From assembly GCF_902784195.1 (NCBI RefSeq), contig NZ_CACZTX010000009.1, forward strand, positions 124,001 to 188,000: a stretch of DNA of 64,000 nt, in the 5' to 3' direction. The position numbers and the translations under genes are program-made. The stretch comes from an uncultured Methanobrevibacter sp. GTDB lineage: Archaea; Methanobacteriota; Methanobacteria; Methanobacteriales; Methanobacteriaceae. The notes beneath the pieces are model-generated. The model saw only the letters and a program-made list of their open reading frames with translations, was not told where the DNA came from and did not search any database. Positions 1 to 11,477 of the stretch are shown piece after piece (position 1 is the stretch's first letter; each line of letters begins with the position of its first letter).

Positions 1-853
1 AATGAATGGTACCGCCAATAATCACCCCATCACTGTTTTTATTAGAATCCAAATCATCAATATATTCGCTTAAATTACGTTTAAAGCAATAATCTACATT
101 TTCCTTCATTCCTGTTTTATTCATGAGGTCAATTGCAAGATCAATGTCTGAAACCTCAAATTCAACGAATTTGTTTAATCTATTGTGAAGCTCTTCTCGA
201 CTTATCTCATCTATTAACACGCCATTATCCATAAATCCAATTACATCAGCAATGTTTTCTATTTCACTTAGGATATGGCTTGAAATCAGGATTGTCACAC
301 CATAATCACAAGATAGCTTTTTAAGTAAATCTCTGATTTCCTTAATTCCAAATGGATCAAGGCCATTAATAGGTTCATCAAGAATCAACAATTCAGGATT
401 ATGCATAATTGCAGCTGCTATTCCTAAGCGCTGTTTCATTCCCAATGAAAAATCCTTGAATTGCTTGCTCTTTTCATGGTCCAAATTAACCATCTCCAAA
501 ACCATCTTGACATTTAGAGGATTATAGTTTCCTCGAAGCCGAGCAATGATTTCTAAATTTTCATAAGCGGTTAAATTCTCATAGAATCCAGGAGTCTCTA
601 TAATTGAACCTATGTTAGAATAAACATCTCTTGCATATCTTTTAGGATCTTTCCCAAAGAGAAGAATCTCCCCGCCACTTGGATGCACAAGGTTTAGAAG
701 CATACACATGGTTGTGGTTTTTCCAGCCCCATTCTTACCTAAAAGGCCATAGATCTTTCCCTTTTCCACATGCACATCTATGGAATTCACAACTAAGTTT
801 TCTGAATACCTTTTGGATAAGTTAGTTGTTTCAATAACATAATCAGTCATCAT
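1..853 (-). CDS. ABC transporter ATP-binding protein, BcrA-like (3' end outside window)
   Basis: The reading frame is open from an ATG at 853 to the left edge, so the C-terminus is missing. The translation shows Walker A GLLGKNGAGKTT, a signature of the form SLGMKQR (the variant typical of bacitracin/lantibiotic-type BcrA ATPases rather than LSGGQ), and Walker B LLILDEP followed by a D-loop. An AGGTGAT ribosome-binding site precedes the tandem ATGs at 853 and 850. By family it would energise a cytoplasmic-membrane exporter of peptides or drugs; a permease gene would be expected just beyond the window. Its upstream region holds a 20-bp-phased operator array, so regulated expression is likely. 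The ATPase family is certain; the substrate is not visible. Confidence 0.93.
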   Translation of the reverse strand, partial: MMTDYVIETTNLSKRYSENLVVNSIDVHVEKGKIYGLLGKNGAGKTTTMCMLLNLVHPSGGEILLFGKDPKRYARDVYSNIGSIIETPGFYENLTAYENLEIIARLRGNYNPLNVKMVLEMVNLDHEKSKQFKDFSLGMKQRLGIAAAIMHNPELLILDEPINGLDPFGIKEIRDLLKKLSCDYGVTILISSHILSEIENIADVIGFMDNGVLIDEISREELHNRLNKFVEFEVSDIDLAIDLMNKTGMKENVDYCFKRNLSEYIDDLDSNKNSDGVIIGGTIH

Positions 854-1004
854 ATCACCTTTGATAATAAAATAATAATAAATTATAATAAACAATAATT
901 TTAAATGAATTTTTTCAAACTTTTTATAATTGAAGAAATAATTTTTTCTAAATTTATTTGAATATTATGTGCACAAAATAATCAAAGGAGGAAATTAGAA
1001 ATAT

Positions 1005-1080
1005 GTAATTAATTTTTTACTTTTGTCAAAAATTATTTACTTTTGTAAAAAATACATTACATATGTAATAATTATTTTAC
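1005..1080. promoter_or_regulatory. Phased array of TTAC-N4-GTAA operators
   Basis: TTAC half-sites begin at 1017, 1037, 1057 and 1077, and GTAA (or GTCA) half-sites at 1005, 1025, 1045 and 1065, so the period is exactly 20 bp. Complete dyads are 1017-1028 (TTACTTTTGTCA), 1037-1048 (TTACTTTTGTAA) and 1057-1068 (TTACATATGTAA, inside a perfect 14-bp palindrome at 1056-1069). A plus-strand TATA-like ATATATAAAT follows at 1083-1092. The spacing of about two helical turns would place dimers on one face of the DNA. The target could be the ABC gene (minus), a plus-strand transcript toward hisA, or both; the regulator is not in the window. Confidence 0.6.
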
Positions 1081-1265
1081 ATCATATATAAATGTTTTGT
1101 TAAAATCAGCACAAACTTTATGAGATTATTGAAAAAGAAGAACTAAATTCCATATGAGAAAAGTATAAAATAAGAAATAAATTAATAATATAAAGTGAAT
1201 ATATTATAATATTATAATTGTTAATAATTCAAATTATAAATTCAAAGATTTAAAAAGGAATCAAA

Positions 1266-11310: not shown

Positions 11311-11401
11311 AGCTTTTTATAAAAGTATTAACTTAAATAATAGAATTATAATTATTAAAATTATTAAATATTAAACTATTAAATTATCAAATTTTATTAG
11401 A

Positions 11402-11477
11402 ATCATTAGAATTATTAAAATTATTAAAATTATTAAAATTATTAAAATTATTAAAATTATTAAAATTATTAAAAAAA
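11402..11477. repeat. Seven tandem 9-bp repeats (ATTATTAAA)
   Basis: Seven perfect copies of ATTATTAAA run from 11411 to 11473, preceded by one or two degenerate copies. The array lies 35 bp before the ribosome site of the nog1 gene, where its promoter should be. Tandem 9-mers are prone to slipped-strand copy-number change, which would alter promoter spacing. Confidence 0.9.

What the first reader, a model, noticed from the sequence alone, without database searches (positions are those of the whole stretch)
1005..1080. Strictly 20-bp-phased TTAC-N4-GTAA operator array
Eight half-sites fall on a perfect 20-bp grid over 76 bp between a BcrA-like ABC ATPase gene and hisA, directly upstream of a plus-strand TATA. 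Such phasing suggests cooperative binding of dimers along one face of DNA, as in drug-responsive repressor arrays. No regulator gene is adjacent.
Basis: seen in the sequence. Interest (0 to 1): 0.65.

Follow-up and report, generated by a model that had tools for sequence, protein, structure and literature searches.

The report
Archaeal repressor array for ABC transporter
Four back-to-back 20-base binding sites sit right after a gene switch in a gut methane-making microbe; they most likely let one small DNA-binding protein, encoded elsewhere in the genome, shut off an antimicrobial-immunity-like membrane pump together with its own gene.

Summary
The array is real and far beyond chance (31 of 32 letters on a 20-bp grid; best of 600 simulated windows 24). 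Its promoter points the other way: on the minus strand TTTATATA (1092-1085) is followed 2 bp later by the operators, then by the ABC ATPase and permease. hisA is incidental: it is the other neighbour in 9 of 14 genomes with the array; the ABC gene follows in 13 of 14. A profile search finds three full modules in the genome: this one, one before an 80-aa XRE protein with two DUF4013 membrane proteins, one before a YtfJ-like gene. The XRE protein is the probable regulator: 40 of 40 testable loci of its close group have the same TATA-plus-operator before the XRE gene, and in 32 of 34 loci of another clade the ABC gene lies downstream of it on the same strand. In the window's genus the transporter stands apart but has its own operators. 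The XRE protein resembles CylR2, repressor of enterococcal cytolysin. Binding and repression are inferred. Ten literature searches found no description of this regulon.

The parts
1093..1100 (-). BRE-like A-rich stretch (ACAAAACA; GAAAC or AAAAC in the sister promoters)
   Evidence: position read from sequence; 19-row alignment. The label BRE is recalled, not from a call
1085..1092 (-). TATA box TTTATATA of the ABC operon promoter
   Evidence: near-invariant in alignment A3
1063..1082 (-). operator 1, ATGTAAAATAATTATTACAT (12 of 12 letters of ATGTAA-N8-TTACAT)
   Evidence: 98% conserved in nine orthologous regions, blocks 1055-1094
1043..1062 (-). operator 2 (11 of 12)
1023..1042 (-). operator 3 (9 of 12)
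1003..1022 (-). operator 4 (11 of 12)
955..1000 (-). conserved stretch of the presumed 5' leader (CCTCCTTTGAT...TTGTGCACA), function unknown
   Evidence: conservation 0.86-0.91 in blocks 955-1014 against 0.46-0.70 in 875-954; sequences
1..853 (-). ABC transporter ATPase gene (start 853 or 850; its end lies outside the window at C9:123870), BcrA/LanF-like
   Evidence: permease follows outside the window at C9:123090-123812

Best explanation
The array is a set of four abutting 20-bp operators placed just downstream of the TATA box of a minus-strand archaeal promoter that drives the ABC ATPase-permease pair. A dimer of the 80-aa XRE protein encoded at G000:C6:82128-82367 most likely binds each operator. 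Operator 1 begins 2 bp after the TATA box and reaches the expected start site (about 1062, from the usual archaeal distance, recalled), so binding would block TFB/RNA polymerase; operators 2-4 would add cooperative, graded repression. The same module stands before the XRE gene itself (autoregulation) and before a YtfJ-like gene. In another clade XRE, two DUF4013 membrane proteins, ABC ATPase and permease follow one another on one strand; in the window's genus the transporter stands apart with its own operators and would be co-regulated in trans. Release probably needs a partner, since the XRE protein has no ligand domain; the co-encoded DUF4013 membrane protein is the candidate sensor, as CylR1 is thought to be for CylR2. 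Shown here: array, conservation, fixed orientation, three-member module set, XRE/ABC linkage. Inferred: binding, repression, cooperativity, operon structure, the signal, and an envelope or antimicrobial-peptide defence role.
For: Array beyond chance. Present in 14 of 19 genus genomes, with the ABC gene downstream in 13 of 14 (cut by the locus end in G002 and G014) while the other side varies. In nine hisA-adjacent orthologous regions 1015-1094 is 94-99% conserved, flanking 20-bp blocks 46-91% on the ABC side and 64-89% on the hisA side. Profile search: three full modules in the own genome at 43.9, 39.2 and 37.7 bits; the next hit, 20.2 bits, is a further operator of the XRE promoter. Autoregulation: of 43 XRE loci of the 78-80 aa group, 40 had at least 160 bp upstream and 40 of 40 have TATA with an operator exactly 10 bp after its start; of 35 other XRE loci 3 do; among 805 other ATG-started ORFs of 100 aa or more in the 80 loci 5 do, 3 of them ABC genes (two near-identical) and 1 the XRE site seen from the next gene. 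ABC downstream of XRE-DUF4013 on the same strand in 32 of 34 loci L122-L155; in the genus 0 of the 5 loci (of 9) that reach far enough. Outside the genus, 13 module loci read: first gene an ABC ATPase in 7, XRE in 2, FtsX/MacB-like in 2, a divergent XRE-like gene before DUF4013 in 1, contig end in 1. Array length changes by whole units: 3 in G010, 5 in G017. XRE model matches CylR2, Z 11.2-11.3.
Against: No binding, expression or start-site data. The module scan and the R1 profile were seeded from these same sequences, so own-genome and genus hits are partly by construction; only the score gap, the control ORFs and the hits in genomes outside the training set are independent. G061 and G081 carry the module at an ABC gene but only an XRE paralogue without operators in its own promoter. 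G027 and G065 have the module before an FtsX/MacB-like gene, and their best XRE genes lack the operator. G013 keeps one operator but not at the TATA+10 position. G007 has the array but no XRE orthologue was found (62% complete). G004 keeps a four-unit array beside hisA though the ABC gene is gone (not including it; sequence). G017's transporter is more divergent (ABC 60%, permease 50%) and falls outside the genus clade on a long branch. The 26-bp spacing in XRE promoters argues against a strict same-face rule.
Confidence: 0.8

Rival explanations
1. The array controls hisA (or both genes) from a plus-strand TATA.
For: TATATAAA can be read on the plus strand; hisA is the other neighbour in 9 of 14 genomes; and in G004 the array persists beside hisA after the ABC gene was lost.
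Against: In 5 of 14 genomes another gene lies directly on that side. Four same-genus hisA loci without the ABC gene lack the array (L002, L010, L012, L018). The XRE, YtfJ and other-genus copies point from TATA through operators to the gene. The hisA start is about 180 bp away and the stretch between is less conserved.
Confidence: 0.06
2. A different regulator binds the array, and the XRE gene is only one of its targets.
For: G061 and G081 have the module at the ABC gene without an XRE orthologue that bears it; the recognition-helix letters are shared with paralogues that do not have this operator.
Against: XRE is the most constant partner (40 of 40), is a DNA-binding protein of a fitting kind, and self-operators are common for such proteins (recalled).
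Confidence: 0.12
3. The XRE protein binds the array but activates, or represses and activates by occupancy.
For: No expression data exist; other XRE proteins can activate (for example a paper title in the listing).
Against: The operators begin 2 bp downstream of TATA and run over the expected start, a repressor's place; archaeal activators usually bind upstream of BRE/TATA (recalled).
Confidence: 0.08
4. A-rich repeat, nucleosome-positioning signal or chance pattern without a regulator.
For: The window is AT-rich and full of short tandem repeats.
Against: Score gap to simulations, conservation island, and association with the same gene families across genera.
Confidence: 0.01

Closest known systems
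CylR2 of Enterococcus faecalis (PDB 1utx, 2xiu), with CylR1
   Same: Small stand-alone Cro-type fold (Z 11.2-11.3, 65 residues aligned, 43% identity). Review passages say that CylR2 binds the promoter of the cytolysin (lantibiotic) operon and that a suspected membrane protein, CylR1, is needed for induction. Here too a membrane protein gene (DUF4013) stands next to the XRE gene.
   Different: Archaeal TATA promoter; controls an exporter-like ABC pair and its own operon, not a toxin; DUF4013 was not compared with CylR1; the operators were not compared with CylR2's sites, as that paper is not held.
DR_2454 of Deinococcus radiodurans (PDB 9k3w)
   Same: Best sequence and fold match in the PDB (E 1.8e-12; Z 11.4, 53% identity).
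   Different: Only the structure title was seen; its target genes are unknown to me.
LanFEG/BcrAB-type immunity ABC transporters
   Same: Best NCBIfam hit of the ATPase (window part, 283 aa) is TIGR03740 lantibiotic protection (E 2.7e-74); the permease hits MutG (E 5.6e-12) and PF12730.
   Different: Both score below the curated NCBIfam cut-offs (249.6 of 309.75; 45.6 of 117.2), so membership is not claimed.
Tandem operators of phage and restriction-modification control proteins of the XRE class (recalled)
   Same: Several dyads for one small repressor overlapping a promoter, with autoregulation.
   Different: Chromosomal, archaeal, three promoters in one genome, up to five abutting 20-bp units.

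Membership tests
XRE / HTH_3 (PF01381) regulator | HTH_3 domain above Pfam gathering score | tested here: met
   58.4 bits against 23, residues 5-53
CylR2-like small XRE repressor | whole-length fold of a stand-alone HTH protein of about 65-80 aa | tested here: met
   model pLDDT 91; CylR2 Z 11.2-11.3, rmsd 1.3-1.4, 65 of 66 residues
CylR2-like small XRE repressor | binds sites in its target promoter and represses | not testable with these tools
   only sequence association, 40 of 40 promoters
CylR1/CylR2 two-protein system | membrane protein partner related to CylR1 | not tested
   a DUF4013 gene is adjacent; no comparison with CylR1 was made
Lantibiotic-immunity ABC transporter (TIGR03740, MutG TIGR03733) | score above the curated NCBIfam cut-off | tested here: not met
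   249.6 of 309.75 (window part of the ATPase) and 45.6 of 117.2 bits
Drug-responsive repressor (TetR, MarR, PadR type) | HTH of that family plus a ligand-binding part | tested here: not met
   the candidate regulator has 80 residues and one XRE-type HTH; no such family matched
Archaeal TATA/BRE promoter | TTTAWATA with A-rich stretch before it, in fixed register to the operator | tested here: met
   the consensus is recalled
Archaeal TATA/BRE promoter | transcription start about 26 bp downstream | not testable with these tools
   no RNA data
GerW/YtfJ sporulation protein (third target) | TIGR02874 equivalog cut-off | tested here: not met
   42.3 of 116.3 bits; but PF09579 met, 40.6 against 25

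The most novel reading that the evidence does not exclude
Gut methanogens own a CylR2/CylR1-like envelope defence switch: the small XRE protein is held off or on its operators by the co-encoded DUF4013 membrane protein, which senses bacterial antimicrobial peptides or membrane damage and so releases the immunity-like transporter, a membrane-protein set and, in one subclade, YtfJ-family genes. Regulon membership has been rewired by moving the transporter with its operator array.
Probability: 0.25. Interest if true: 0.75.

Novelty: new member of a known kind. Interest (0 to 1): 0.5.

Why it matters
Few regulator-operator pairs are known in Methanobacteriales (recalled). Here one sequence island in an intergenic gap leads to a candidate regulator, its operator, three target promoters and a readable evolutionary path (one gene cluster in some clades, two or three unlinked units in another). 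The pump and membrane proteins under it are candidates for how rumen and gut methanogens withstand the peptides of their bacterial neighbours, a question of practical interest for methane control, and the system is small enough to test in vitro.

Tried and rejected
Whether the array is a general feature of hisA loci: rejected; the seven hisA loci of other genera scanned for the module (L014-L017, L019-L021) have none. Whether the dimer site is TTAC-N4-GTAA: rejected because the array begins and ends with whole GTAA-N8-TTAC units, arrays differ by whole 20-bp units and XRE promoters break the junction with a 26-bp step while keeping the unit. The counts (85 modules, none without a GTAA-N8-TTAC of 7 of 8 or better; 5 without the junction dyad) are largely by construction, since modules were picked by that unit, and are not used as proof. 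Spacings there: 96 of 117 are 20 bp, 8 are 26, 13 others.

RNA folding of the presumed leader gave no convincing structure (z -1.29; 20 of 200 shuffles at least as stable), so the 8-nt complementarity between the leader CCTTTGAT and the ABC ribosome-binding region ATCAAAGG is only noted.

The other XRE-like gene found in this genome (G000:C12:21847, 47% identity) was considered as regulator and set aside: the profile search shows no full module near it. The 67-aa XRE paralogues of other clades share the recognition-helix letters but have other promoters, so helix sequence alone does not predict the operator.

Literature: ten searches. Search listings only were seen, except passages of PMC3709268 and PMC3062615. 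DUF4013 occurs in one held paper, on cotton. No listed title or abstract describes this regulon; most subscription papers are not held.

Gene labels that come from my reading of the sequence and from no call: NUDIX-like (G014), iron-sulphur protein (G002, G011), GNAT-like (G004, G011), FtsX/MacB-like (L164, L219, L222), and the ABC label of the first genes.

Full report
What is there. The window (G000:C9:124001-188000) comes from an archaeon of the Methanobrevibacter kind; the named records nearest to its XRE protein are mostly Methanobrevibacter MAGs. Between a minus-strand ABC ATPase gene and plus-strand hisA lies an array of eight TTAC/GTAA half-sites on a 20-bp grid. Scored as four GTAA-N8-TTAC units it reaches 31 of 32; 300 simulated windows with the window's dinucleotide composition reached at most 23 and 300 with the intergenic composition at most 24; no other period from 14 to 30 scores above 20 here.

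Conservation. A pattern of two TTAC-N4-GTAA dyads at 20 bp, with up to one mismatch, occurs in 14 of the 19 genus genomes and in none of the other 41 genomes searched; the reversed-pattern control hit 4 of 60 genomes. In nine orthologous regions with hisA on the other side, the 20-bp blocks from 1015 to 1094 are 94-99% conserved, dropping to 74% and 68% in the next two blocks on the hisA side; on the ABC side 955-1014 is 86-91% and 875-954 46-70%. On the other side of the array lies hisA in 9 of 14 genomes; in G002 and G011 an iron-sulphur-type gene lies between, in G014 a NUDIX-like gene, and in G010 and G017 other genes are the neighbours (labels are my reading). The ABC gene follows in 13 of 14, cut by the locus end in G002 and G014; in G004 the ABC pair is gone and a GNAT-like gene, which follows the permease in G011, stands next to the kept array, still beside hisA. 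Four same-genus hisA loci have neither array nor ABC gene (L002, L010, L012, L018). The array therefore goes with the ABC gene, with G004 as the one exception.

Direction. On the minus strand the block reads A-rich BRE-like stretch, TTTATATA (1092-1085), two bases, then four abutting 20-bp dyads, 1082-1063, 1062-1043, 1042-1023 and 1022-1003, with 12, 11, 9 and 11 of 12 letters of ATGTAA-N8-TTACAT. The ABC start codon is at 853 or 850. In G005 the ABC gene begins about 30 bp after the array, so the rest of the leader is dispensable there. Array size changes by whole units, three in G010 and five in G017.

The other copies. A DNA search with the 106-bp block and a profile of TATA plus operator 1 found three full modules in this genome: C9:125063 (this one, 39.2 bits), C6:82477 (43.9) and C6:3304 (37.7); the next hit, 20.2 bits, is a further operator of the C6:82477 promoter, and the next independent one has 19.5. 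The profile contains these three sequences, so the informative parts are the gap and the hits outside the training set. C6:82477 stands before an 80-aa XRE protein followed by two DUF4013 membrane proteins and a protein without family match; two CPBP-like genes, one of them tested, precede it. C6:3304 stands before a YtfJ-family gene. In all three the gene lies downstream in the TATA-to-operator direction.

The regulator. The XRE protein matches HTH_3 and related HTH families only; by sequence and predicted fold its nearest solved relatives are DR_2454 and CylR2. Eighty loci with relatives of it were fetched from named genomes, the best 80 of 103. Of the 43 loci with the 78-80 aa form (L113-L155), 3 had under 160 bp upstream and were dropped; all 40 others have TTTAWATA with an operator of at least 10 of 12 letters starting exactly 10 bp after it. 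Of the other 37 XRE loci 2 were dropped for the same reason, and 3 of 35 have it. Of 805 other ATG-started ORFs of 100 aa or more in the same loci, 5 have it within 300 bp upstream: three ABC genes (two of them near-identical), one gene directly behind an XRE gene (the same site), and one FtsX/MacB-like permease.

The link to the transporter. In loci L122-L155, from another Methanobrevibacter clade, relatives of the window's ABC ATPase (66-73% identity in nearly all, with partial matches in L131 and L141) lie downstream of XRE and DUF4013 on the same strand in 32 of 34 loci, at times with a gap of some 800 bp; two of these loci come from one MAG. In the window's genus none of the nine loci L113-L121 shows it, but four of them (L113, L114, L120, L121) end too soon, so the fair count is 0 of 5. 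In Methanosphaera-like loci the order is ABC, permease, XRE, DUF4013 (L161, L168, L170, L171), with the module before ABC in three of the four. A tree of 49 permease rows (rows under 90% coverage dropped) puts 11 split-off copies of the genus in one supported clade (96/100) together with the XRE-cluster copies in a weakly resolved group (95/78); G017's copy lies outside on a long branch. Outside the genus the profile hit 15 of 70 genomes at E up to 1e-4 (32 of 89 with the genus). One locus each was read for 13 of these 15 (not G032, G075): the first gene is an ABC ATPase in 7, XRE in 2, FtsX/MacB-like in 2, a divergent XRE-like gene before DUF4013 in 1 (G035, module with one extra base), contig end in 1.

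How it probably works. The array is an operator set for the ABC promoter; the XRE protein binds it as dimers and blocks the promoter from the TATA edge downstream; it also limits its own operon. The abutting 20-bp units suggest neighbour contacts, but the 26-bp step in the XRE promoters shows that strict two-turn phasing is not needed. As the protein has no ligand domain, a partner must carry the signal; the DUF4013 membrane protein is the natural candidate, by analogy with CylR1 (review passages). All of this paragraph is inference from position and association.

Results against. G061 and G081 have the module before an ABC gene but only an XRE paralogue whose promoter lacks it; G027 and G065 have the module before an FtsX/MacB-like gene and their best XRE genes lack it. 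G013 retains one operator away from the TATA+10 place. In G007 (62% complete) no XRE orthologue was found, and in G006 (73%) neither XRE nor a full module. The YtfJ gene carries the module in 4 genomes (G000, G009, G012, G018) of 14 with a match to the gene, some of these at contig ends, so that branch of the regulon is a recent addition or loss. G004 keeps the array without the ABC gene.

Verdict. Real, conserved, and explained as the operator array of a small archaeal XRE regulon, a new member of a known kind of control. On re-checking, several counts were narrowed (0 of 5 rather than 0 of 9; four hisA loci rather than three; seven other-genus hisA loci); the odds did not need to change.

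Noticed in passing
window 955-1000 (-): Conserved leader stretch after the array, CCTCCTTTGAT...TTGTGCACA, partly complementary (8 nt) to the ABC ribosome-binding region and similar to an anti-Shine-Dalgarno (recalled); partly duplicated in G018, absent in G005.
   Followed up: partly
L093 3304-3972 (G000:C6): A YtfJ-family gene, followed by two genes without a curated family match, has the operator module in 4 of 14 genus genomes that match the gene.
   Followed up: partly
L004 2465-3646 (G004:C17): Four-unit array left behind after loss of the ABC pair; a natural orphan array beside hisA.
   Followed up: yes
L101 / L171 (G016:C8, SUTG01000090.1): Contig in a M. olleyae MAG carries an ABC-permease-XRE set whose permease is identical to that of a Methanosphaera record; coverage in the titles 27.98 against 1.99 for another contig, so probably a binning contaminant.
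   Followed up: partly
L210 1322 and 1506 (G111): Two complete TATA-plus-operator modules 184 bp apart before one ABC gene.
   Followed up: no
L164 925, L219, L222: The same module before an FtsX/MacB-like permease gene (my reading) in other genera.
   Followed up: partly
L156, L158-L160, L163 and similar: 67-aa XRE paralogues followed by CPBP-like genes have nearly the same recognition helix but a different promoter sequence.
   Followed up: partly
window 11345-11474: 9-bp tandem repeat (ATTAAAATT, about 15 copies).
   Followed up: no
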